64,000 nucleotides of DNA from Phycisphaeraceae bacterium (GTDB lineage Bacteria > Planctomycetota > Phycisphaerae > Phycisphaerales > SM1A02), in contig CP054178.1 in the NCBI GenBank assembly GCA_015709595.1, positions 930,001 to 994,000 of the forward strand. The letters are read 5' to 3'. The notes under the pieces are model-generated. The model ran no database searches and was not told the origin of the DNA. It worked only from the letters and a program-made list of their open reading frames with translations. The stretch's first letter is position 1. Each line of letters opens with the position of its first letter. Positions 43,195 to 55,955 of this stretch are shown here, piece after piece. The translations under genes were made by a program, and so were the position numbers.

Positions 43195-44385
43195 GTGGCT
43201 CCAAGAACGAAGTCGCCTGGAGCGTTCGTGCCGATCAGCGAGAGCCCGCCGAACGCCTTGGCTCTGAGCGGTCGCCCCGGCACCCTTCGTGCCTTCGTTC
43301 CCGACCCGCTCCCGCCGGAGTTGGACGCAGCGTCCTTCGTGCGGCTCACCGATGCCCTCGTACGAGCAGAACGAGCGCTGGGGCTGCTGGAAGGGAGTGC
43401 GCGGCGATTGGCGAACCCGCACATTCTGATCGGACCGTTCGCGCGAAAAGAGGCGATTCGCTCCTCCGGCATCGAGGACACCTTTGCGGACATCGAGGAG
43501 GTCGTGCGTGTTGAAGCCGACCTCGATCGACACACGCGACGAAACGATGCGGTTGAAGTGCGAAACTACGTGCGCGCGCTGGAGCAGGGCCTGCGGTCGG
43601 ACCTGCCGATCTCGCAGCGACTGATCCGCGAGTTGCACTGCACCCTGCTGACAGAAACGCGCGGCGCAAACCGTGATCCCGGCAACTACCGACGTTCACA
43701 AAACTTCATTGGCGGGGGCGGCGCTGTACGGTTTGTCCCACCTCCAGCCAATCGAGTGCCCGACCTGATGTCGGATCTGGAGAGGTTCGTCCATGACACG
43801 CGCATCGAACTCCCCCAACTCATCCGGATCGCATTGACGCACTATCAGTTCGAAACGATTCACCCATTTCAGGACGGAAACGGGCGCGTCGGACGGCTGC
43901 TCATCACCCTTCAACTTTGCGACGGAGCGCGACTGACCAAGCCCTTGGTCTACGTCAGCGGGCATTTCGAGAAGCATCGTGCGGAGTACTACGATCGGCT
44001 TCTCGCTGTCAGCATGGTGGGAGACTGGGTCGGGTGGATTCTGTTTTTTCTTGAGGCGATCGAATCAACTTGTCGCGATGCCCTCCGGCGGTCCGATGAT
44101 CTGCTCCAACTCCAGCAGGAGTACCACGCACGCGTTCGAGTGCCACGCGCCTCAGCCCTTCTTCCAAAAATCATCGATCAGTTGTTCGTTCAACAGTGGC
44201 TGACCGTGTCCGTGGTGTCAAGGGAGTGCGGAATCACTCCACCCGCTGCGACTGGGCTCATCCGGAAACTCGAAGCGGTCGACATCATCCGGGAGGTGAC
44301 GGGCGCGAGGTATGGCCAAACGTGGTTTGCTCCGGGGGTCATTGACATCATTCGCCGGGAATACGACGATGTGCCACCCGCCTGA
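43195..44385 (+). CDS. Fic-family AMP-transferase with N-terminal inhibitory helix
   Basis: 396 residues from GTG at 43195. The Fic core motif HPFQDGNGRVGR (223-234) is complete, including catalytic His223. The N-terminal inhibitory motif (S/T)xxxE(G/N) appears as SSGIED at 90-95, with Asp in the last position. The segment VRFVPPPANRVPDLMSDLER is the flap typical of this class, and a C-terminal winged helix (CGITPPAATGLIRKL) follows. Such enzymes transfer AMP or related groups to Ser, Thr or Tyr of target proteins, with self-inhibition by the Glu of the motif. The gene has lower GC than its neighbours and stands alone, suggesting transfer. Confidence 0.92.
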   Translation: MAPRTKSPGAFVPISESPPNALALSGRPGTLRAFVPDPLPPELDAASFVRLTDALVRAERALGLLEGSARRLANPHILIGPFARKEAIRSSGIEDTFADIEEVVRVEADLDRHTRRNDAVEVRNYVRALEQGLRSDLPISQRLIRELHCTLLTETRGANRDPGNYRRSQNFIGGGGAVRFVPPPANRVPDLMSDLERFVHDTRIELPQLIRIALTHYQFETIHPFQDGNGRVGRLLITLQLCDGARLTKPLVYVSGHFEKHRAEYYDRLLAVSMVGDWVGWILFFLEAIESTCRDALRRSDDLLQLQQEYHARVRVPRASALLPKIIDQLFVQQWLTVSVVSRECGITPPAATGLIRKLEAVDIIREVTGARYGQTWFAPGVIDIIRREYDDVPPA

Positions 44386-44419
44386 TCCTTTGCCTCTGTC
44401 GAACTCGCTCAAGGGACGC

Positions 44420-45490
44420 ATGATCTTCCGCGCCATCGCCGCATTCCTGTCCATCCTCCCCCTTTCCGGTTGTACACGGTGGGCGGGTGATGACACCTTC
44501 ATCCTCGACGGCCGCACCGGCGAGCGGCTGACGTGGGAGGCCGTGCTCGATCGTGCCGCCGACGCGGATGTCATCGTCCTCGGCGAACTGCACGATGACA
44601 ACGCCGGCCACGCGCTGCAGCAGCGCTTCTACCGCGATGCGCTGACCCGCTGGCCCGGCGCCGCGCTCTCCATGGAAATGCTCGATCGGGCCGATCAGGC
44701 GGCGACCGATGATTACCTCGCCGGATACATCGACCGTGACCAGTTCATCGAGGCCACCACCAACACGCGCTGGCGGAAGATCGCCCAGGACTATCTCGCG
44801 GGCACGATCGACCGCACCCAGTTCGAGCAGCGCATCCTCCGCATCGGCTGGCCGGAGTGGGACACCAACTACCAGCCCATGATCGACGCGGCGAAGGAGG
44901 CCGGCGCGCCCGTCATCGCCGCCAACGCGCCGTGGGCGCGGTACACGCGGCTCATCAACGCCACGGACGAATACGCCGAACTGGCGGCGCTCTCACCCGC
45001 GCAGGCGGCCCTCATCGCCATTCCCACGCAGGTCCACACCGGCGCCTACCGGGCGCGATTCTGGCAGGTGATGGCAAATCGAGCGGAAGGCGAAGCCCCC
45101 CCACCCCCCCCGCCTCCGCCGCCCGCGCCGACACCGGCAACCGGCGACGCCGCCGCTCCTCCCGCCAACCCCCATGCCGCACCGCGCGGCATGACCGACC
45201 CCCAAGTGCTCGACGGCTACCTCAAGCAACTGCTCTACGACGCCACCATGGCGGACTCCATCGCCCGCGCGCTCGCGTCGGGGCGCATCACCAAGGTTGT
45301 TCACCTTGTCGGGCAGTTCCACTCCGACTTCGAGGGCGGCACAATCCTTGAACTCCGCGCCCGCCGACCGGGCGTGCGCGTGCTGAACATCTCGCTGGTG
45401 CGCGACGACTTCAACTCGCTGCGCGAGGACGACCGCGGCCGGGCGGACATCATCATCCGCACCAGCGCGGCCGCGGCGGATGCGAACTGA
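44420..45490 (+). CDS. ChaN-like haem-regulated lipoprotein with a proline-rich insert
   Basis: 356 residues from the ATG at 44420 (AAGGGA upstream). The signal peptide ends in the lipobox LPLSGC. The family signature is early: VIVLGELHDDNAGHALQQRF, then LSMEMLDRADQ, and near the end HLVGQFHSDFEGG. These match the Cofac_haem_bdg/ChaN family, thought to bind haem at the outer membrane. Between about 225 and 260 a poly-Pro and Ala/Pro stretch interrupts the domain, probably an exposed loop. An upstream in-frame ATG at 44312 overlaps the Fic gene and would hide the lipoprotein signal. Confidence 0.85.
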   Translation: MIFRAIAAFLSILPLSGCTRWAGDDTFILDGRTGERLTWEAVLDRAADADVIVLGELHDDNAGHALQQRFYRDALTRWPGAALSMEMLDRADQAATDDYLAGYIDRDQFIEATTNTRWRKIAQDYLAGTIDRTQFEQRILRIGWPEWDTNYQPMIDAAKEAGAPVIAANAPWARYTRLINATDEYAELAALSPAQAALIAIPTQVHTGAYRARFWQVMANRAEGEAPPPPPPPPPAPTPATGDAAAPPANPHAAPRGMTDPQVLDGYLKQLLYDATMADSIARALASGRITKVVHLVGQFHSDFEGGTILELRARRPGVRVLNISLVRDDFNSLREDDRGRADIIIRTSAAAADAN

Positions 45491-45514: not shown

Positions 45515-46732
45515 ATGTCACGACGAGTCGCCGTCATCGCCGCGCTTCGCACGCCCGTGGGCCGCTACGGCGGCGCGCTCGCGTCCATTCGCCCGGATGA
45601 CCTGGCCGCCCACGTGATCCGCGCCGTGGTGGCGCGGTCGGGCATCGCCCCTTCGCTCATTGATGATGTCTACCTCGGCGCCGCCAACCAGGCGGGCGAG
45701 GACAACCGCGATGTCGCCCGCATGGCCGTGCTGCTCGCCGGCCTGCCCGACAGCGTGCCCGGCTGCACCGTGAACCGGCTCTGCTCATCGGGTCTCGAAG
45801 CCATCAATATCGCCGCCCGTCTCATCGAAAGTGGCCACGGCGATGTGATGATCGCGGGCGGCGTCGAATCCATGACCCGCGCGCCCTTCGTCTTTCTCAA
45901 GCCGGAAAGCGCGTTCGACCGCACGCCCCCCGCGGTCTTCGACACCACCATCGGCTGGCGCTTCACCAACCCCCGGCTGGCCGCGATGCACCACCCGTAT
46001 TCGATGGGCGAGACCGCCGAGAACGTCGCGCGGAAGTACGGCATCACGCGCGAGGAGCAGGACCGCTTCGCCTTCAACAGCCAGATGAAGTGGAAAGCCG
46101 CGCACGAGCAAGGGCTGTTCGGCGATGAGATCATGCCGGTGGAGATCACCCAGCGGAAGGGCCCTCCCATTGTGTTCGACACCGATGAACACCCACGGCC
46201 CGACACCACGATGGAGGCGCTGGCCAAACTCCGCCCCGCGTTCGCCAAGGACGCCGCCGGGGGCGGCACCGTCACCGCCGGCAACGCCTCCGGCGTGAAC
46301 GACGGCGCGGCCGCGCTGCTCCTCGTCGAAGCCGACACCGCCCGACGGCTGGGGTTGAAGCCCATCGTCTTCGTCGGCCCGAGCGCCACGGCCGGCGTGG
46401 ACCCGGCGATCATGGGCGTCGGCCCCGTGCCCGCCACGAAGAAGGCCCTCGCACGGGCGCGTCTGACCATGTCCGACATCGAGTTGTTCGAACTCAACGA
46501 GGCCTTCGCCGCCCAGTCGATCGCCTGCATCCGCGACCTGGGTCTTGATGAGTCTCGCGTGAACGTCAACGGCGGCGCCATCGCCATCGGCCACCCGCTG
46601 GGCGCGAGCGGCGCGCGCATCGCCACCACGCTCATCCACGAGATGCGGCGACGCAAGAGCAAGCACGGCGTCGCCGCCCTCTGCGTGGGCGTGGGCCAGG
46701 GCGTGGCGACGGTGTTTCATGGGGTGGAGTGA
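45515..46732 (+). CDS. Thiolase (acetyl-CoA acyltransferase)
   Basis: 405 residues, full thiolase length. Catalytic Cys lies in [11 protein letters not shown]; the His and second Cys are in [16 protein letters not shown] and [11 protein letters not shown]; the covering loop motif is NEAFAAQS. It cleaves 3-ketoacyl-CoA or condenses two acetyl-CoA; sequence alone does not show direction or chain length, although features near the N-terminus ([15 protein letters not shown]) resemble beta-ketoadipyl-CoA thiolases. TATGAT at 45504-45509 ends 5 bases before the ATG with no ribosome-binding site, so the mRNA may be leaderless. It could act with the dehydrogenase at 42206. Confidence 0.93.
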
Positions 46733-47253: not shown

Positions 47254-48381
47254 ATGGCTCAGGCATACACACCAGGATTGAAGGTCGCCCCCAAGACCAC
47301 ACACCGCTGCCGGCGGGTGCTGCCCATTCCGGGCGAGGTGCTGGTGAAGCAGGGGCAGACCGTCGGCCCGCGCGACGTGGTGGCGGAAACCTTCATGCCC
47401 GGCGACATCACGCCGGTGAACCTGGCCAATCTGCTTTCCGTCCCGCCCGAGGACGTGCGCGGCTGCATGATCAAGAAGGAAGGCGATACGGTCAAACTGG
47501 GCGAGCCGATCGCCCGCACCAAGGGCATTTTCGGGCTGTTCAAGAACGAGTGCAAAAGCCCGGCGGAAGGGACCATCGAGGCCATCTCGGACGTCACGGG
47601 GCAGATGATCATCCGCGGGGCGCCCATCCCCGTACAGGTCCTGGCCTACATGGCGGGAACCGTCGTGGAGGTGATCCCGAAGGAAGGGTGCATCATCGAG
47701 AACGACGTGTCCTACATCCAGGGCATCTTCGGCATCGGCGGCGAGACCTTCGGCGTGATCAGGCCCGCCTGCAAGGATCACACGCAGGAACTCACCGATG
47801 ACCTCATCACCCCCGACATGAAGGGGTGCATCATCATCGGCGGGGCGCGGATGACCGACAAGGCCATCGCCAAGGCCCGGAGCATCGGGGCGGCGGGCGT
47901 GGTGTCGGGCGGCATCGACGATCAGGATCTCAAGGAGTTCCTCGGTTACGACCTGGGCGTGGCTATCACGGGCAGCGAACGGATGGGCGTGACGCTCATC
48001 ATCACCGAGGGCTTCGGCGAGATCGCCATGGCCGAACGCACCTTCCAACTGCTTCACGCGCTGGCGGGCAAGGAGGCGTCGATCAACGGCGCCACGCAGA
48101 TCCGCGCGGGCGTCATGCGCCCGGAGGTCATCGTGCCGTGGACGGCGGACGTGGCGGCCCCCAGGGGAGGACCGCAGTACGAGGAAGGGCAACTGGCGAC
48201 GGGTCGGCCGGTTCGCATCATCCGGGACCCCTACTTCGGGCTGATTGGCAAGGTGGCGTCGCTGCCGCCCGAGCCGGCGGTGCTGGGGTCGGGTTCGAAG
48301 GCCCGGGTGCTTGAAGTCAAGCTCGATTCCGGGGAAAGTGTGACCATTCCGCGGGCCAACGTGGAACTGATCGAAGGGTAA
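47254..48381 (+). CDS. Operon gene 1: soluble barrel-sandwich/KOW-like protein
   Basis: 375 residues from the ATG at 47254; the frame is open upstream to 46903 but that part is not protein-like. No signal or membrane segment. The N-terminus reads as a barrel-sandwich fold (RRVLPIPGEVLVKQGQTVGP, KSPAEGTIEAISDVTGQMI), as in RnfC or biotinyl-type domains. The middle has IIIGGARMTDKAIAKARSIG and SGGIDDQDLKEF. The end is a KOW-like strand pair (GLIGKVASLP, ARVLEVKLDSGESVTIPRAN). It is the first of five tightly spaced genes; four of them encode membrane proteins. I know of no described function. Confidence 0.75.
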   Translation: MAQAYTPGLKVAPKTTHRCRRVLPIPGEVLVKQGQTVGPRDVVAETFMPGDITPVNLANLLSVPPEDVRGCMIKKEGDTVKLGEPIARTKGIFGLFKNECKSPAEGTIEAISDVTGQMIIRGAPIPVQVLAYMAGTVVEVIPKEGCIIENDVSYIQGIFGIGGETFGVIRPACKDHTQELTDDLITPDMKGCIIIGGARMTDKAIAKARSIGAAGVVSGGIDDQDLKEFLGYDLGVAITGSERMGVTLIITEGFGEIAMAERTFQLLHALAGKEASINGATQIRAGVMRPEVIVPWTADVAAPRGGPQYEEGQLATGRPVRIIRDPYFGLIGKVASLPPEPAVLGSGSKARVLEVKLDSGESVTIPRANVELIEG

Positions 48382-48384
48382 CCC

Positions 48385-49701
48385 ATGCGGATCAAACGCC
48401 GGAACGTGTCACGGAGGCGGCTTCTCGCCGGGCTGCTGGCGGCGGGCTTGGGAGCCGTCCCGACCCTCGCCCAGGGCGAAGCGCCCCGTCCGCCCTCGAA
48501 CGTGGCCGCCGTCGACGCCCCGTGGGACAATGGCACGAAGATCAACCTGACATGGTCGGCCTCGCCGGACGAGGCGGGCGTGCGCCACTACGAAGTCCGC
48601 CGGGCGATCGCGTCCATCGGCGGCAACCGCGTGGCGACGCCGGTGTTCGACGTGGTGGCCAAGGTGCCCGTCAACAACGGGAACGGCGGGACGTACGCCT
48701 TCACGGTCACCGACCTGCCGTACGAGATTCGCAAGCGCGACTTCAAGAATTTCCCCTCGCTGGAAGGTGCGCAGGCCCTGCTTGACACGGGCCGACCGAC
48801 ATTCCGCCCCACGTTCCTCTTCGAAGTCGCGGCGGTCGGGAAGGACGGAGCCGCGTCCGCCGCAGCCCGCCTGTCGGAGCCGATACAGCCGATCATGCAG
48901 TGGTTCGACGGCGGTCGGTTCTACTTCCTGCTCACACTGATCGTGTTCTGCGGCGCGGTGCTGGTGTTCATCGTGCTGGCGCGCGGGGGCAAGCCGCTGA
49001 AGGTGCGCAAGATCGCCGGGCTGGAGGCGGTGGATGAGGCGGTGGGCCGGGCCACGGAAATGGGCCGGTCGATCCTGTTCATCCCCGGCATTCAGGACAT
49101 GAACGACATCCAGACCATCGCGGGCATCAACGTGCTCTCGCACGTGGCCCGCACGTCGGCGGAATACGACGCCAAGGTCGAGGTGCCCACCAGCCGCTCG
49201 CTGGTGATGACCACCGCCCGCGAGACGGTGCAGAACGCGTTTCTCGCCGCCGGACGACCCGACGCCTACAACGAGGATCTGATCTACTACGTCACCGACG
49301 AGCAGTTCGGGTACGTCGCGTACCTGCAGGGCATGATGGTCCGCCAGAAGCCGGCGGCGTGCTTCTACATGGGTTCGTTCTTCGCCGAATCGCTGATCCT
49401 GGCCGAGACTGGCAACTCGATCGGCGCCATCCAGGTGGCGGGCACCGCGCAGCCGGCCCAGTTGCCCTTCTTCGTGGCGGCCTGCGACTACACGCTGATC
49501 GGCGAGGAGTTCTTCGCCGCCTCGGCCTACCTGTCCGGGTCGCCCGAGGAGCTGGGCTCGCTCAAGGGTCAGGACGTGGGCAAGGTGATCGTCGGCGTCG
49601 GCATGCTTCTCGGCGTCGTCGCATGGACCCTGGCGGCCATGACCGAGAGCGAGTTTCTGCAGGGAATCGTGGACTTCATGCGAGGCACGCTGCTGGTTTA
49701 G
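48385..49701 (+). CDS. Operon gene 2: DUF6754-like membrane protein with Fn3-like domain
   Basis: 438 residues. The signal segment (RRLLAGLLAAGLGAVPTLA) leads to a fibronectin-III-like domain (INLTWSASPDEAGVRHYEVR). A membrane helix FYFLLTLIVFCGAVLVFIVL follows, then a cytoplasmic domain with FIPGIQDMNDIQTIAGINVL, ARTSAEYDAKVEVPTSRSLV and YVAYLQGMMVRQKPAACFYM, and a final helix VIVGVGMLLGVVAWTLAAM. The cytoplasmic part resembles DUF6754 as I remember it. It starts 3 bases after gene 1, so the two are co-translated. No enzymatic motif is visible. Confidence 0.75.
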   Translation: MRIKRRNVSRRRLLAGLLAAGLGAVPTLAQGEAPRPPSNVAAVDAPWDNGTKINLTWSASPDEAGVRHYEVRRAIASIGGNRVATPVFDVVAKVPVNNGNGGTYAFTVTDLPYEIRKRDFKNFPSLEGAQALLDTGRPTFRPTFLFEVAAVGKDGAASAAARLSEPIQPIMQWFDGGRFYFLLTLIVFCGAVLVFIVLARGGKPLKVRKIAGLEAVDEAVGRATEMGRSILFIPGIQDMNDIQTIAGINVLSHVARTSAEYDAKVEVPTSRSLVMTTARETVQNAFLAAGRPDAYNEDLIYYVTDEQFGYVAYLQGMMVRQKPAACFYMGSFFAESLILAETGNSIGAIQVAGTAQPAQLPFFVAACDYTLIGEEFFAASAYLSGSPEELGSLKGQDVGKVIVGVGMLLGVVAWTLAAMTESEFLQGIVDFMRGTLLV

Positions 49702-49713
49702 GAACCTCCCACC

Positions 49714-50445
49714 ATGAAACGCACCGCACCGCTCATCATCATGGCGATCGGGGGCTTCGTCCTCATCTTCTCGTTCTTCATTCCGTGGGCGCAGAACTGG
49801 GGCGAGGTGGTGGGGATCTGGTTCAACATCCTCGCGGGCATCGCCTTCATCCTGGGCGGGGGCAACCTGCTCAAGATCCACCTCAAGAAGATCTCCGACC
49901 GCAAGGCGGGGTACGGGTATTCGATCATCTGCCTGGCGGCCTTCCTCGCCACGCTCGCCGTGGGGCTGGGCAAGATCGGCGTCAATCCGAACCCGCAGTA
50001 TCCCGCCTACGGCTGGTCAGGCGACTATCGCGAGCTGGGCAGCCCCTTCTGGTGGTTCTACGAGTACGCCTTCAAGCCGCTCACCGCGACCATGTTCGCC
50101 ATGCTGGCGTTCTACATCGCCTCGGCGGCGTTCCGGGCCTTCCGCGCCAAGAACATCGAGGCGGTGCTGCTGCTGGGCACCGCGTTCGTGATCCTGCTGG
50201 GGCGCACGTTCGCGGGCGTGCTGCTGACCGCGTGGCTGCCCTCGGCGCCGGCGCAGGACCCCACGTTCTTCCAGCTGCTGATCAACTACCTCAAGATCGA
50301 CAACATGACGGTGTACATCATGAGCGTGTTCAACACCGCCGGGAACCGCGCGATCATGATCGGCATCGCGCTGGGCATCGCCAGCACTTCGCTGAAGGTG
50401 CTGCTGGGCGTGGACCGGTCCTACCTCGGATCGGGAAAGGAGTAG
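49714..50445 (+). CDS. Operon gene 3: polytopic membrane protein
   Basis: 243 residues with five or six hydrophobic helices, for example APLIIMAIGGFVLIFSFFIP, GIWFNILAGIAFILGGGNLL, GYSIICLAAFLATLAVGLGK and AVLLLGTAFVILLGRTFAGV. Hydrophilic parts are short. There are no transporter motifs that I recognise. It follows gene 2 by 12 bases and precedes gene 4 by 3 bases; it is probably a core membrane subunit of the same complex. Confidence 0.75.
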   Translation: MKRTAPLIIMAIGGFVLIFSFFIPWAQNWGEVVGIWFNILAGIAFILGGGNLLKIHLKKISDRKAGYGYSIICLAAFLATLAVGLGKIGVNPNPQYPAYGWSGDYRELGSPFWWFYEYAFKPLTATMFAMLAFYIASAAFRAFRAKNIEAVLLLGTAFVILLGRTFAGVLLTAWLPSAPAQDPTFFQLLINYLKIDNMTVYIMSVFNTAGNRAIMIGIALGIASTSLKVLLGVDRSYLGSGKE

Positions 50446-50448
50446 CCC

Positions 50449-51369
50449 ATGGCCGCTGACGCCACCAACCAGGCCGGGCCGGGCGGGTTCGACCTGTTCA
50501 CGTTCCTCAAGACGCTGGATCGCCGCTGGATCTTCCTGCTGATGTTCCTCGCGGTGGCGGTGCCCATTCTCTTCCAGTTGAAGTTCCCGGAGAAGGCCTC
50601 CGGCCTGGCCGAGGCGGTGTACAACGAGATCGAGGCGCTGGAGGAGGGGGACAAGGTGCTCCTCGCCTACGACTTCGACCCCGCCAGCGAGGGCGAACTG
50701 GGGCCGATGGCCACCGCCTTCGTGCGGCACTGCGCGGAGAAGAAACTCAAGATCTACTTCATGGCGCTCTGGCCCGTCGGCCCGCAGATGATCGACGACG
50801 TGATCAACGACGTCATCAAGACCGACTTCCCCCACATGGTCTACGGCGAGGATTACGTCAACCTCGGCTTCAAGACGGGCAACGAGGGGGTCATCCGCGT
50901 CATCGTGACCAACCTGCGCGAGTTGTACTCCACCGACGCCGCGGGCACCAACCTGGGCCAGATTCCCATGATGCAGGGAATCGAGAACATCCAGGCGATG
51001 AAACTCATCATCAACGTGTCGGCGGGATACCCCGGCACCAAGGAGTGGGTGCAGTACGCCGCCACCCCCCACCGCATCCGCCTCGTCGCCGGCTGCACCG
51101 GCGTGCAGGCGCCGCTGCTGTACCCCTACATTCCCAACCAGCTGCCCGGACTGCTCGGCGCCATCAAGGGGGCGGCGGAGTATGAGAAACTGGTGCTGGA
51201 CAAGTACGGCAAGCGCAACGCCGCCGGAGAACTCGTCGAAGACCCCAAATACCTCAAGGGCATCAAGCGCATGGGCCCGCAGCTCATCGCTCACGTGCTC
51301 ATCATCCTGCTCATCGTGGCGGCCAACGTGATCTACTTCGTCGAGAAGAAGCGGGAGGCCCGCGCATGA
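50449..51369 (+). CDS. Operon gene 4: bitopic membrane protein with large soluble domain
   Basis: 306 residues. Membrane helices occur near each end (RRWIFLLMFLAVAVPILFQL and LIAHVLIILLIVAANVIYFV). The 220 residues between them form one domain: VLLAYDFDPASEGELGPMAT, IYFMALWPVGPQMIDDVIND, YVNLGFKTGNEGVIRVIVTN and LIINVSAGYPGTKEWVQYAA. Its alternating strands and helices recall a Rossmann-like fold. Its stop overlaps the next ATG (ATGA at 51366-51369). No known function. Confidence 0.75.
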   Translation: MAADATNQAGPGGFDLFTFLKTLDRRWIFLLMFLAVAVPILFQLKFPEKASGLAEAVYNEIEALEEGDKVLLAYDFDPASEGELGPMATAFVRHCAEKKLKIYFMALWPVGPQMIDDVINDVIKTDFPHMVYGEDYVNLGFKTGNEGVIRVIVTNLRELYSTDAAGTNLGQIPMMQGIENIQAMKLIINVSAGYPGTKEWVQYAATPHRIRLVAGCTGVQAPLLYPYIPNQLPGLLGAIKGAAEYEKLVLDKYGKRNAAGELVEDPKYLKGIKRMGPQLIAHVLIILLIVAANVIYFVEKKREARA

Positions 51370-52415
51370 ACCGCGAGTCGATGATCTTCACCGTTCTGCT
51401 GGTGGTCGGCGCCGTCTGCCTGCTGGTCAACGGACTGGTGCGCGGCGCCGGCGCCTCGTACGTCAAGGTCACCAAGCACGAGTTCGTCCAGGTGGTCGAT
51501 CCCGCCTCCGTCGACGGCAAGCCGACGTGGATGCCGATCGCCGTCGCCCGTGCGAAGGGAATCGCCAATCTCCCCGCCGCGGGCAGCCCGGACCATATCA
51601 CCTGGGATTCGGAGTCCTCCATCACCAAGCGCACGCACGACCAGGAGCGCCTGACCGCGCCGAACCCGGAACAGTACCGATTCTCCCTGGCCCGCACCGC
51701 GGGCGTGTGGGCGGCGGGACTGTTCACGCTCGCCATCTTCTCCTTCCTCTACCGCGACAACCCGCTCTACAAGGTCGCGGAAGCGGTGCTCGTGGGCGTC
51801 TCCGCCGCCTACTGGATGGTCGTCGCCTTCTGGGACACCATCGTGCCCAACCTGATCGGCAAGCTCTCGCCGGACACCGTGCAGCAGTGGGCGATGCCGG
51901 GCCTGGCCGAGGACCGCAACCTGTGGTACCTCATTCCGCTCGTGCTCGGCGTGATGCTGCTGTGGCGACTGGCGCCCAAGGGCAACTGGATCGCCCGATG
52001 GCCTCTCGCCTTCATTATCGGAACCACCGCCGGATTGCGCCTGGTCGCCTACATCCACGGCGACTTCCTGGCCCAGATTCGCAACGGCATCCTGCCGCTC
52101 TACGTCGAGGTCAACGATGCGTTCAACCTGTGGGAGTCGGTGAAGAACCTGCTCATCGTCTTTGGATGCCTGGTGTGCCTGGTTTACTTCTTCTTCTCCG
52201 TCGAGCACAAGGGCATCGTGGGCAAGACGGCCCGCGTCGGCATCTGGGTGCTGATGATCACCTTCGGCGCCGGCTTCGGCTACACCGTCATGGGGCGCAT
52301 CGCACTGCTGGCGATCCGGCTCGAGTTCCTCTTCGACGACTTCCTCTGGCTGATCGACCCGGAGAACAAGCGCGCCATGCTGATGCCTCTGCTGGCGTCG
52401 TTCGGCATCGCCTGA
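51366..52415 (+). CDS. Operon gene 5: polytopic membrane protein
   Basis: 349 residues. An N-terminal helix (IFTVLLVVGAVCLLVNGLVR) and a soluble stretch precede about seven helices, among them TAGVWAAGLFTLAIFSFLYR, LWYLIPLVLGVMLLWRLAPK and LLIVFGCLVCLVYFFFSVEH. No transporter signature. It overlaps gene 4 by 4 bases and ends the operon; a 100-base gap separates it from the efflux genes. Together, genes 2 to 5 look like an inner-membrane complex, with gene 1 as a soluble partner. Confidence 0.75.
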   Translation: MNRESMIFTVLLVVGAVCLLVNGLVRGAGASYVKVTKHEFVQVVDPASVDGKPTWMPIAVARAKGIANLPAAGSPDHITWDSESSITKRTHDQERLTAPNPEQYRFSLARTAGVWAAGLFTLAIFSFLYRDNPLYKVAEAVLVGVSAAYWMVVAFWDTIVPNLIGKLSPDTVQQWAMPGLAEDRNLWYLIPLVLGVMLLWRLAPKGNWIARWPLAFIIGTTAGLRLVAYIHGDFLAQIRNGILPLYVEVNDAFNLWESVKNLLIVFGCLVCLVYFFFSVEHKGIVGKTARVGIWVLMITFGAGFGYTVMGRIALLAIRLEFLFDDFLWLIDPENKRAMLMPLLASFGIA

Positions 52416-52518
52416 TCGCCGAATCCGGTCCGCGACGCTGAATGGTCTGACTCCCCGCTGAAACCCCGGTCGGGTGCAGCCCAATAATGGAGCATCCCGG
52501 GGGGCCTGGGGCTGCAGC

Positions 52519-53934
52519 GTGAAGATCATCATCGGCGTGATTGTCGGCTTCGTGGTGCTCGCAATCGGCGGGCTGGCGATAGCCGGCTTTGTGTTCAGGG
52601 ACCACATGACGTTTCTCGCCAGCGCGCCCCGCGCCACCGAAGTGCGGGTCGAAACGGTCGCGGCCCGCGAACTGATCGAATCGGTCCCGGCGCCGGGCGA
52701 GATCGAACCCAACACCAAGGTGGACATCAGCGCCACCGTGGTCGCCGAGATCGTCGCGCTGCCCTTCCGCGAAGGCGACCTGGTGAAGAAGGGCGACGTG
52801 GTGGTGCGTCTGGACGATCGCGAACTCACGGCCCGGCTGCTGGGGGCGCAGGCGTCGCTGGAATCCACCAAGGCCAATCTCGAATCCGTGCGAGCCAGCC
52901 GCGCCCGCACCCAGGCGCAGCTGCTCGAACAGCAGGCGCGGCACAAGGGCGTGCTGACCACGCTGGAGTTCGCGGAGAAGAACCTGCAGCGCAAGCGTGA
53001 GCTCCACGATTCGGGCGACATCCCGCTGGCCGAACTCGAGACCGCCCAGGAGCGCGTGCGCGAGGTGCTGGCCCAGATCGACGCCTCGAACATGCTCATC
53101 GCCGCAGCGGAAAGCTCGCTGCAGGCCGCTGACGCCCAAATTCTGCAGGCGGAGGCGGCGGTGCGCCAGGGCGAGGCGGAAATCCGCCTTGCCGAGGAAG
53201 CGCTCCGCAACACCATCATCGCCTCGCCCATTGACGGCAAGGTCACCAAGCTCAACGCCGAGGTGGGCGAGCGCGTCGTCACCGGCACCATGAACAACCC
53301 CGGCACGGTCATCATGACCATCGCCGACCTGTCGCGCATGAAGATGATCGCCCGCGTCGCCGAGGCGGACGTGGCCAAGCTTCAGACGGGGCAGAAGGCG
53401 CGCGTCACCATCGAAACCTATCGCGACACCGTCTTCCACGGCGTGGTGGACCGCATCGCCCTGCAGCGAACCACCGCCAACGACGGAACCGGCTTCTTCG
53501 AAACGGAGATCATGCTCCGGCTCGACGGGCGCGAGATCCGCTCGGGTCACGTGGCCAACGTCGAGATCGAGATCGCCACCCATACCGGCATCGTGGTCCC
53601 CAGCCAGGCGGTGGTCGAGCGGGCCGTCGAGGATCTCCCCATCGAGGTGGTCGAAAACAACCCCCACGTGGACCGCAACAAGAAGACCATTCGCGTCGCC
53701 TACCGGGTGGTGGACGGCAAGGCCGTCGCCACGCCCGTGCGCGTCGGCCCCAGCGATCTGACCCACACGCTCGTTCTCGGCGGACTTGACGCGGGCGACG
53801 TGATCGTGACGGGTCCGTACAAGGTGCTGGACAAGATCAGGCATGATGAGCGCGTGGTGGACCTGACCACGCTGCCCCGCAAGCCCGCCAGCGGCGCCGC
53901 CGCGGGCGGCTCAACCGGCGGATCCGCGTCATGA
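52519..53934 (+). CDS. Periplasmic adaptor of a MacAB-type efflux system
   Basis: 471 residues from GTG at 52519, where the membrane helix begins ([20 protein letters not shown]); an in-frame GTG at 52474 adds 15 residues. The HlyD/MacA layout is complete: a lipoyl half ([20 protein letters not shown]), a long coiled-coil hairpin of about 130 residues ([20 protein letters not shown] to [13 protein letters not shown]), the second lipoyl half ([20 protein letters not shown]) and a beta-barrel. It links the ABC transporter to an outer-membrane channel. Its stop overlaps the next gene (ATGA). Confidence 0.88.
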
Positions 53935-54692
53935 CCATCCGGATCCGCCAGATGCGCAAGACCTATCGCGTGGGCGTGGAGCGCATCCACGCCCTGCGTG
54001 GGGTTGACCTGGATATCGAGAAGAACGAGTTCGTCGCCATCATGGGCGCTTCCGGCTCAGGCAAGAGCACGCTGATGAACATCCTGGGCTGCCTTGATCG
54101 CCCCAGCGCGGGGGAGTATCACCTGGCCGGACGCCGCACCGACCGCATGAGCGGCGCGGAACTGGCCCAGGTGCGCAACGAACTGATCGGGTTCGTCTTC
54201 CAGTCCTTCGAGCTGCTACCGCGCCAGACCGCGCAGAAGAACGTGGAGCTGCCGCTGGTCTACGCCCGCGGCGGGTGGCTCAACCGACGCAAGCGCGCCC
54301 GCGAGGCCCTGGACCGGGTGGGCCTTGGCGAGCGCGTGCGCCACCGACCCAATCAGCTGTCCGGCGGGCAGAAGCAGCGCGTCGCCATCGCCCGCGCGCT
54401 CGTCAATCGACCCGCCATCCTGCTGGCCGACGAGCCCACCGGCAACCTCGACTCGCAGACCACCGCCGAGATCATCAACCTGTTTCAGGAGCTGCACGCC
54501 GAGGGGCAGACCATCATCCTCGTCACGCACGAGGAAGATGTGGCCGCCGCCTGCCAGCGGATCATCCGTCTGCGCGATGGCCAGATTCTCTCCGACCTGC
54601 CCCGCGCGCAGGATCCCGTTCACCTGGAGCACATGAAGCGCATGGTGCATGCCGCCCCGTTCGCGCCGCGTTCCGTCGCCGACTCCGCCTGA
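53931..54692 (+). CDS. MacB-type ABC transporter ATPase
   Basis: 253 residues. Walker A is GASGSGKST (39-47), the ABC signature LSGGQKQR near 142, Walker [13 protein letters not shown] near 163, and the H-loop VTHEEDVA. The fold and the TGNLDS motif fit the MacB/LolD/FtsE branch. Here the ATPase is a separate protein, whereas E. coli MacB fuses it to the permease. It overlaps the adaptor gene by four bases. The system probably exports peptides, lipoproteins or drugs; the substrate is not readable. Confidence 0.93.
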
Positions 54693-54710
54693 CCCGTGGT
54701 TCGCCCGCCC

Positions 54711-55955
54711 ATGATCCTCAACCCCCTTTTCCTGGCGCAGACCGTGATGCTCGCCCTGTCGCAGATCTGGGCGAACAAGACGCGGTCGTTCCTCACCTCG
54801 CTGGGGATCATCATCGGCGTGGCGTCGGTGACGGCGGTCATCGCCGCGCTTGACGGGCTGAAGACCAAGGTTCTCACCGAGTTCCAGACGCTGGGCGCCA
54901 ACAAGATCTTCATCATCCACGACCGGCCCGACGGCGAACCGCGCAACAAGTACCCGTGGGAGAAGATCCGCCTCAAGCCGGAGGAACTTGAGGAGATCGC
55001 CGCCAACTGCCCGTCGATCAAGCACGTCACGCCGCAGACCACGCTGGGCGCGATCATCCGCGCCGGCGACGAGATGCGTGAAGGCGTCGAGGTCACGGGC
55101 ATCTGGCCCACCTGGCATGAGATCGAGAATCGAAGCGTGCTGATGGGCCGCCCGTTCAACCGCATCGATGAGGAAATGGCGCGGCAGGTCTGCCTGGTCA
55201 ACGAGGACGCCATCAAGGAGCTCCGTCTCGACGCCGATCCGACCGGCGACACCATCCTGCTCAACAACCGCCAGTTCCTGATCGTGGGCGTGGTGGAGAA
55301 ACGCCCCGCCAGCATCTTCAACCAGCGCAACGTGGCCACCGAGGTCATCATTCCGTTCTCCACGGCCCGCAAGATGCAGCCGCCGGACTTCTTCTTCTTC
55401 ATCCTGGGGCAGACCTGGTCGCCCGACGTGGCGGAGGAGGCCAAGGCCGAGGTGCGCTTCGTGATGCGCAAGGCCCGCAACCTGCAGCCGGGCGACGCCG
55501 ACACCTTCGAGGTGCAGGCCATCGACCAGTTCATCGCGCAGTTTCAGGCGCTGGCGGCGGGCATCACCGCCATCGCGGGCGGCATCGTCGCCATCTCGCT
55601 GCTGGTGGGCGGCATCGGCATCATGAACATCATGCTGGTGTCGGTCAGCGAGCGCACCCGCGAGATCGGGCTGCGCAAGGCCGTGGGCGCGCGCCCCGGC
55701 GCGATTCTGATGCAGTTCCTGGTGGAGGCGGTCATGCTCTGCTTCGCGGGCGGGCTGGCCGGTCTGACGATCGCCCAGCTCCTGGCCTTCGGGCTGACCA
55801 AGATTCCCAACGCCGGGCTGGAGCAGGCGGCCATTCCGCTGTGGGCGGTCATCATGGCCTTCGCCTTCAGCGCGGCGGTGGGCATCATCTTCGGCATGTT
55901 CCCCGCCGTGAAGGCCGCCCGACTCGACCCCATCGAAGCCCTGCGGCATGAGTGA
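54711..55955 (+). CDS. MacB/FtsX-type ABC permease
   Basis: 414 residues from the ATG at 54711; a GTG at 54696 is 5 codons upstream. The layout is N-terminal helix (TSLGIIIGVASVTAVIAALD), a periplasmic MacB_PCD domain of about 230 residues, then the FtsX membrane domain with ALAAGITAIAGGIVAISLLV, ERTREIGLRKAVGARPGAIL (the classic coupling motif) and two more helices ending LDPIEALRHE. It works with the preceding ATPase as a mechanotransmission pump rather than as an ordinary importer or exporter. Confidence 0.93.
   Translation: MILNPLFLAQTVMLALSQIWANKTRSFLTSLGIIIGVASVTAVIAALDGLKTKVLTEFQTLGANKIFIIHDRPDGEPRNKYPWEKIRLKPEELEEIAANCPSIKHVTPQTTLGAIIRAGDEMREGVEVTGIWPTWHEIENRSVLMGRPFNRIDEEMARQVCLVNEDAIKELRLDADPTGDTILLNNRQFLIVGVVEKRPASIFNQRNVATEVIIPFSTARKMQPPDFFFFILGQTWSPDVAEEAKAEVRFVMRKARNLQPGDADTFEVQAIDQFIAQFQALAAGITAIAGGIVAISLLVGGIGIMNIMLVSVSERTREIGLRKAVGARPGAILMQFLVEAVMLCFAGGLAGLTIAQLLAFGLTKIPNAGLEQAAIPLWAVIMAFAFSAAVGIIFGMFPAVKAARLDPIEALRHE

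What the first reader, a model, noticed from the sequence alone, without database searches (positions are those of the whole stretch)
47254..52415. Five-gene operon of unknown function building a membrane complex
Genes are spaced 3, 12, 3 and -4 bases apart, so they are one unit. Products: a soluble barrel-sandwich/KOW-like protein, an Fn3 plus DUF6754-like membrane protein, two polytopic proteins and a bitopic protein with a large Rossmann-like domain. No enzyme, transporter or secretion signature is visible. A soluble partner of RnfC-like fold suggests redox or coupling work, but this is speculation. It looks like a core chromosomal system, not cargo.
Basis: partly seen in the sequence, partly recalled or inferred. 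Interest (0 to 1): 0.65.

Follow-up and report, generated by a model that had tools for sequence, protein, structure and literature searches.

The report
Uncharacterised ATPase-linked inner-membrane complex
Five adjacent genes encode parts of an unstudied bacterial inner-membrane machine found in several bacterial phyla, and its likely partner is an actin-fold ATPase named after a vitamin-B12 enzyme helper, which gives a first handle on how the machine may be powered.

Summary
The operon is real (gaps 3, 12, 3, -4) and conserved: g2-g3-g4-g5 are collinear in 85 of 97 copies tested, and g1 precedes g2 in 39 of 44. The finding covers only part of the system. In relatives g1 is usually preceded by, or fused to, a long MutL (PF13941) ASKHA-fold protein, often preceded by two small genes. 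This genome keeps all eight parts at three distant places. Of 199 Planctomycetota genomes, 45 have both DUF6754 and MutL, 5 and 9 only one. None of the 50 DUF6754 genomes has the glutamate mutase E subunit for which MutL is named. Models show g2 as Fn3, membrane helix, Rossmann-like DUF6754, membrane helix; g4 as a Rossmann-like domain between two helices. The RnfC/redox idea is not supported: only a generic barrel-sandwich segment is shared, and g1 has no conserved cysteine. Best reading: an inner-membrane machine worked by the MutL-type ATPase through adaptor g1. That the parts form one system is well supported; the ATP-driven mechanism is inferred; the substrate is unknown. One library search found no paper naming DUF6754.

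The parts
47254..48381 (+). g1: soluble 375-aa protein, barrel-sandwich-like N half and KOW/SH3-like C end; proposed adaptor between the MutL-type ATPase and the membrane module
   Evidence: fused to MutL in Neomarinimicrobiota loci L062, L065, L069
48385..49701 (+). g2: 438 aa; signal-peptide-like N-terminus, Fn3 (predicted periplasmic), membrane helix, DUF6754 (alpha/beta, predicted cytosolic, Sir2-like fold lead), membrane helix
49714..50445 (+). g3: 243 aa, six predicted membrane helices, no family
50449..51369 (+). g4: 306 aa; Rossmann-like alpha/beta domain (about 52-253) between two membrane helices, predicted periplasmic
51366..52415 (+). g5: 349 aa, seven predicted membrane helices (an eighth possible), no family; its start overlaps the end of g4 by 4 bases

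Best explanation
The five genes encode the adaptor (g1) and the inner-membrane module (g2-g5) of an eight-component system; the other three are a long MutL-type (PF13941) ASKHA-fold ATPase and two small proteins, c1 (soluble) and c2 (membrane, PH-like). Proposed mechanism: the cytosolic ATPase docks through g1 on the cytosolic DUF6754 domain of g2; its ATP-driven cleft motion is passed through the g2-g5 membrane bundle to the periplasmic Fn3 (g2) and alpha/beta (g4) domains, doing work on an envelope substrate (transport, or assembly/remodelling). Shown: gene linkage, gene fusion, co-occurrence, domain folds (models). Inferred: physical complex, topology (positive-inside rule), ATP hydrolysis (motifs intact), direction of coupling. 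Unknown: the substrate.
For: In the 80 named loci: g2-g3-g4-g5 collinear in 85 of 97 copies with room; g1 before g2 in 39 of 44; MutL followed by or fused to g1 in 37 of 41; g1 with MutL directly upstream or fused in 32 of 37. MutL-g1 gene fusions in Neomarinimicrobiota and, in a diverged stand-alone form, in genomes G264, G295, G308 and G219. 199 Planctomycetota genomes: both 45, DUF6754 only 5, MutL only 9, neither 140, Fisher p 8e-30 without phylogenetic correction; by family 21/4/6/48, p 3e-10, with 79 families as a lower bound. MutL in 24 of 25 genomes that I chose among those behind the named loci. All parts kept in this genome though dispersed; g4 kept in all 8 f32 genomes searched, five of which have it away from g1-g2. 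ASKHA motifs intact in 15 of 15 long MutLs aligned. Glutamate mutase E in 0 of 50 DUF6754 genomes. Topology from charge bias and models.
Against: No biochemical data; complexes could not be modelled here. Exceptions: MutL without g2 and g4 in G248 (99% complete; it also has c1 and g1), G151 and G171 (73 and 79% complete; G171's match is partial) and G290 (four MutL places, yet no glutamate mutase E either); G165 has MutL and g4 but no DUF6754 hit. DUF6754 genomes without a MutL hit: G113, G135, G139, G148, G240, all of 320 or more contigs; and one of 25 (G304, behind L111, whose record is titled a chromosome). Five of 37 g1 genes lack MutL upstream. ASKHA proteins can be kinases or chaperones instead of motors (recalled). 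The periplasmic placement of g4 rests on charge bias that is weaker for its second helix (39 versus 10 of 61).
Confidence: 0.5

Rival explanations
1. A membrane-tethered reactivase/chaperone system: the MutL-type protein keeps its supposed GlmL-like role (cofactor exchange or refolding of a B12-type enzyme) and g1-g5 anchor or serve that client at the membrane.
For: PF13941 is the MutL family; the long MutLs match it at E about 1e-128 to 1e-130. That MutL/GlmL is the accessory protein of glutamate mutase, and the reactivase role of such proteins, are recalled, not from a call. MutL-only genomes G151, G165, G171, G248 and G290 lack a glutamate mutase E match too, so MutL there has some other client.
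Against: Glutamate mutase E occurs in none of the 50 DUF6754 genomes; over cut-off it is only in G109, G138 and G194, which have MutL but no DUF6754. 14 long MutLs share 62-74% identity with the host's, the short type (L159) only 31%. No B12-binding family was matched in g1-g5. Other B12 enzymes were not searched.
Confidence: 0.15
2. A redox or ion-coupling complex with g1 as an RnfC/NqrA-like soluble subunit; the Rossmann-like domains of g2 and g4 bind NAD(P) or flavin.
For: Barrel-sandwich similarity of g1 to RnfC and NqrA; DUF6754 resembles Sir2 (1s7g_D, Z 12.0, 139 aligned, rmsd 3.3), and g4 gives middling matches to transhydrogenase domain III (Z 7.3-7.8), folds that bind NAD(P) in those proteins.
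Against: No conserved Cys in g1; at more than 80% of rows g2 has one conserved Cys (C367), g4 and g5 one conserved His each and g3 none, too few for Fe-S or haem sites; RnfC_N and NQRA_N below cut-off. Middling Z is common for such models (tool note).
Confidence: 0.1
3. Several independent neighbours with no common complex: the operon is only a co-transcribed housekeeping group and MutL a fortuitous neighbour.
For: Parts are dispersed in this genome and in several f32 genomes.
Against: Fusion of MutL and g1 in more than one lineage, retention of dispersed parts, repeated tandem copies of the whole g2-g5 module and largely joint presence or absence.
Confidence: 0.08

Closest known systems
MutL/GlmL, glutamate mutase accessory protein (PF13941; its role is recalled)
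   Same: Same ASKHA-fold family; the phosphate-motif regions are shared with the short type in the alignment
   Different: Long form (about 600 aa) with a conserved C-terminal extension, linked to or fused with g1; no glutamate mutase E in the 50 DUF6754 genomes
RnfC / NqrA soluble subunits
   Same: A barrel-sandwich hybrid segment in g1
   Different: Below the family cut-offs; no conserved cysteine; no RnfC_N or NQRA_N match in the host genome at E <= 0.001
Sir2 / transhydrogenase domain III type Rossmann-like folds
   Same: DUF6754 aligns with Sir2 (Z 12.0); g4 aligns at Z 7.3-7.8 with transhydrogenase domain III
   Different: Domains between membrane helices; 8-11% identity in the rows quoted; I identified no catalytic or ligand motif
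PilM/FtsA-type actin-fold ATPases docked on inner-membrane complexes (recalled, no call)
   Same: Analogy only: a cytosolic actin-fold ATPase serving a membrane assembly
   Different: Different ASKHA family; no pilus or division family was matched by g1-g5 in Pfam

Membership tests
DUF6754 (PF20539) family | Profile match above the curated cut-off | tested here: met
   g2: 406.4 bits against 27
Fn3 domain | Profile and fold match | tested here: met
   Profile of the g2 alignment matches titin Fn3 chains; model residues 31-171 against 3lpw_B, Z 13.3, rmsd 1.9, 96 aligned
GlmL/glutamate mutase system (for the linked MutL) | PF13941 match above cut-off | tested here: met
   Host MutL 430.7 bits against 27, E 8e-129
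GlmL/glutamate mutase system (for the linked MutL) | Glutamate mutase E subunit (PF06368) in the same genome | tested here: not met
   No match at E <= 0.001 in the host genome; 0 of 50 DUF6754 genomes
Rnf/Nqr redox complexes | RnfC_N or NQRA_N above the curated cut-off | tested here: not met
   16.8 of 25.6 and 13.3 of 25 bits
Rnf/Nqr redox complexes | Conserved cysteine ligands in the RnfC-like subunit | tested here: not met
   No column with Cys in more than half of 40 g1 rows
Rnf/Nqr redox complexes | Flavin or NAD(P)H binding | not testable with these tools
   needs purified protein
Sir2-like fold (DUF6754 domain) | Structural match well above background over most of the domain | tested here: inconclusive
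   1s7g_D Z 12.0, 139 aligned over model 210-383; the only one of the 50 rows shown that covers this domain, Fn3 fills the rest
Known anti-phage defence systems | PADLOC model match | tested here: not met
   No match for 8 proteins (g1-g5, host MutL, c2, c1) at E <= 0.01
ATP-driven transporter or secretion machine | ATP hydrolysis coupled to substrate movement | not testable with these tools
   needs biochemistry

The most novel reading that the evidence does not exclude
A new class of ATP-powered envelope machine: an actin/Hsp70-fold (ASKHA, MutL-type) ATPase, docked by g1, drives an inner-membrane complex built of one to three g2-g5 modules. It would be unrelated to ABC, P-type, F-type or AAA-driven systems, and would occur in Planctomycetota, Zixibacteria, Gemmatimonadota, Marinimicrobia and other bacteria.
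Probability: 0.3. Interest if true: 0.9.

Novelty: categorically new. Interest (0 to 1): 0.7.

Why it matters
A multi-gene membrane system found in several bacterial phyla, including a cultured Planctomycetota strain (Thalassoglobus neptunius by record title) and, by inference, an anammox bacterium, has no function that I could find described, and its ATPase carries a name that probably misleads. Joining the three sets of genes turns scattered 'hypothetical' and 'MutL' annotations into one testable system. If ATP hydrolysis by an ASKHA protein is shown to drive it, it would add a new kind of energised envelope machine.

Tried and rejected
Homology of g2 (DUF6754) and g4 by sequence: hhalign found none, although both models show the same run of helix and strand elements between two membrane helices (my reading, no structural comparison of the two was possible). 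g3 against g5: none. g1 against g2 or g4: none.

Solved relatives by profile: g3, g4 and g5 gave nothing credible; g1 only weak matches, the best being SPT5 KOW (E 0.069) and RNA polymerase beta' (E 0.24). Foldseek gave no PDB match to g4 at E <= 0.001. The Pfam hit of g5 to Vmethyltransf_C (E 8e-4, 36 residues, below cut-off) was taken as chance. A first hhalign run gave end-forced alignments and was replaced by local mode. A first operon-mapping script read too few loci and found nothing; it was corrected.

Neighbours: the thiolase upstream and the HlyD-type gene downstream in the window are not among the recurring neighbours. The neighbour clustering used longest ORFs, and in nine loci an antisense ORF (cluster c5) took the place where I read MutL to lie; therefore used profile hits on all ORFs. 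Fatty-acid-synthesis-like genes (my reading of sequences) and PPDK downstream in some relatives were not used as functional evidence.

Literature: DUF6754, 0 papers; MutL/GlmL searches gave nothing relevant in their listings; searches on anammox complexomes and on such a cluster gave nothing that I could use on function (listings). The Planctopirus limnophila essential-gene paper (PMC10632474, 12 passages of a term search) has no occurrence of fibronectin, MutL or glutamate mutase in its main text; the Verrucomicrobium one (PMC12283558, term search) has none of the four terms tried. Supplements could not be read, and I did not test whether either species carries the genes.

Full report
OBSERVATION. 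The five + strand genes are as described: g1 47254-48381, g2 48385-49701, g3 49714-50445, g4 50449-51369, g5 51366-52415, gaps 3, 12, 3, -4. g1 starts at 47254: its first residues are near-invariant in an alignment of 40. Only g2 matches a Pfam family above cut-off (DUF6754, E 5e-122); NCBIfam gives nothing above cut-off, PADLOC nothing.

CONSERVATION. g4 has homologues in 63 of 101 genomes drawn mostly from the same family and order. DUF6754 occurs in 50 of 199 genomes sampled across the phylum and in 0 of 14 control genomes, so the system is widespread but far from universal. Their record titles name Planctomycetota, Zixiibacteriota, Neomarinimicrobiota, Gemmatimonadota, Latescibacterota, Eisenbacteria, Coatesbacteria, Acidobacteria, Deltaproteobacteria and others; titles are the depositors' and were not checked. 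P0002 has no match in the plasmid and phage collections.

GENE ORDER. The other seven are L049, L053 and L055 (modules without g1 in the stretch), L051 and L052 (g1-g2 only), L057 (contig end) and L059 (g1 placed after the module). In the 80 named loci, g2 was followed by g3-g4-g5 in 85 of 97 copies with at least 3.6 kb of room; some of the 12 misses look like split or fragmentary hits. g1 was followed by g2 in 39 of 44. The g2-g5 module is repeated in tandem two or three times in many loci, mostly ones titled Zixiibacteriota; by the strict count 13 loci hold two modules and 5 hold three.

THE MISSING PARTNER. Upstream of g1 in relatives lies a gene of about 600 aa; four representatives run against Pfam match MutL (PF13941) at E 1e-127 to 1e-130. 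MutL is followed by, or fused to, g1 in 37 of 41 cases, and g1 has MutL immediately upstream or fused in 32 of 37; the five without are L072, L075, L077, L092 and L098. In three Neomarinimicrobiota loci (L062, L065, L069) MutL and g1 are one protein. A diverged MutL-g1 fusion with a repeated g1-like segment stands apart from the operon in genomes G264 (two copies), G295, G308 and G219. Before MutL often come c1 (small, soluble; within 700 bases in 23 of 37) and c2 (small membrane protein, sub-threshold PH-like match). The eight regions L041-L048, from the window's family and order, have MutL next to g1.

THIS GENOME. MutL is at C1:1888398-1890281 (L150:8399-10282) and c2-c1 at about C1:2712157-2713010, while the operon is at C1:977254-982415. 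So the unit lies in three places with all parts kept. Five genomes of family f32 (G201, G123, G287, G232, G184) likewise have g4 away from g1-g2, and three others (G275, G146, G167) have it beside g2. That f32 is Planctomycetaceae is my inference from L077 (below).

CO-OCCURRENCE. Among 199 genomes (the handles in the calls show the same draw): both DUF6754 and MutL 45, DUF6754 only 5, MutL only 9, neither 140 (Fisher p 8e-30). One of the 9, G222, is a sub-cut-off match. The test ignores phylogeny; by family it is 21, 4, 6 and 48 (p 3e-10), where 79 families is a lower bound read from the highest family number seen. The sampled genomes of three families of the window's own order (f2, f5, f6) have neither. 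The glutamate mutase E subunit is over cut-off in 3 of 199 genomes (G109, G138, G194), all MutL-positive and DUF6754-negative; 0 of the 50 DUF6754 genomes has a match. Hence the long MutL is probably not serving glutamate mutase. Against a simple two-way split, five further MutL-only genomes (G151, G165, G171, G248, G290) have no glutamate mutase E either; G165 does have g4, and G248 has c1 and g1. In 25 genomes behind named loci, 24 have MutL; the miss is G304, holding L111. I chose these 25, mostly where MutL had not been seen adjacent; they are not a random sample.

ANATOMY. Long MutLs keep three motifs (DCGSTTTK, DIGGATTD, SGGVLSH) in 15 of 15 rows (that these are ASKHA ATP-site motifs is recalled) and carry a conserved C-terminal extension beyond the Pfam model. 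g1 has the highest mean column identity of the five alignments (58%; the others 31-54%); it has barrel-sandwich-like and weak KOW-like segments and no conserved cysteine. The g2 model (pLDDT 88.9) shows Fn3 at 31-171, a membrane helix at 176-200, an alpha/beta DUF6754 domain at about 211-384 and a membrane helix at 387-420. DUF6754 aligns with Sir2 (1s7g_D, Z 12.0, 139 aligned, rmsd 3.3), a fold lead from one row. The g4 model (pLDDT 94.5) shows an alpha/beta domain at 52-253 between two membrane helices; best matches are middling (TrkA Z 8.3, transhydrogenase domain III 7.3-7.8, a 168-residue CODH chain 7.8), a common level by the tool's note. The charge bias puts DUF6754 in the cytosol (58 and 57 of 61 at its two helices) and the g4 domain outside (56 of 61; second helix 39 against 10). 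g3 has six and g5 seven predicted membrane helices, with a possible eighth in g5.

MECHANISM. The most economical reading is a cytosolic ASKHA ATPase docked through g1 onto DUF6754, working an inner-membrane bundle whose Fn3 and g4 domains face the periplasm. Usually one MutL and one g1 with one to three membrane modules fits a shared power unit. The linkage and fusion are shown; physical contact, ATP hydrolysis and its use for transport or assembly are inference; the substrate is unknown.

ORGANISM HINT. Genome G185, which has MutL-g1 and the g2-g5 module at separate places, is 4,406,153 bases, 40-41% GC in the two stretches read; Kuenenia stuttgartiensis MBR1 is given as 4,406,132 bases, 41.1% GC in PMC7709395 (passages). 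The identity is my inference. L077 is titled Thalassoglobus neptunius; its contig length equals that of G287's C27, and the MutL of its genome (G313) lies at the same place as G287's.

NOVELTY. No paper in the held library names DUF6754, and four further searches on MutL/GlmL and on such clusters found nothing relevant in their listings. Most subscription papers, and all preprints, are outside this library. I rate the system as categorically new on that footing: no known kind was matched as a whole, though individual domains are known.

Noticed in passing
L128:9821-12208: A single 795-aa ORF joins DUF6754 (g2) with a peptidase S49 domain; no g3-g5 recognised in the locus. A possible functional hint or a fusion with a neighbour.
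   Followed up: no
L161:6275-8749, L226:7310-9817, L227:6010-8958, L228:3923-6898: A second, stand-alone family of MutL-g1 fusions (about 820-990 aa) with a repeated g1-like segment, in genomes that also carry DUF6754. What it works with is unknown.
   Followed up: partly
L222:9512-11338, L223:6761-8605, L224:12239-14059, L074:2934-4751: In f32-type genomes and in L074 g3 is about 605-614 aa instead of about 240; three of the four were run against Pfam and match no family.
   Followed up: partly
L079:15166-16941: The g3 of the third module carries FG-GAP repeats.
   Followed up: no
L160:7391-10332: Genome G110 has a second MutL-g1 pair without a membrane module recognised beside it.
   Followed up: no
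window 44312-45490, 45515-46732, 52474-55955: Neighbours: a ChaN-like haem-binding family match, a thiolase, and an HlyD-type fusion protein, the last followed by what reads like a MacB-type ABC exporter (my reading).
   Followed up: no
L119:9989-19514: Two convergent g2-g5 modules in a record titled Coatesbacteria; the genome's MutL match is in pieces, one of them between the modules next to c1, which may be an inversion or an assembly error.
   Followed up: no
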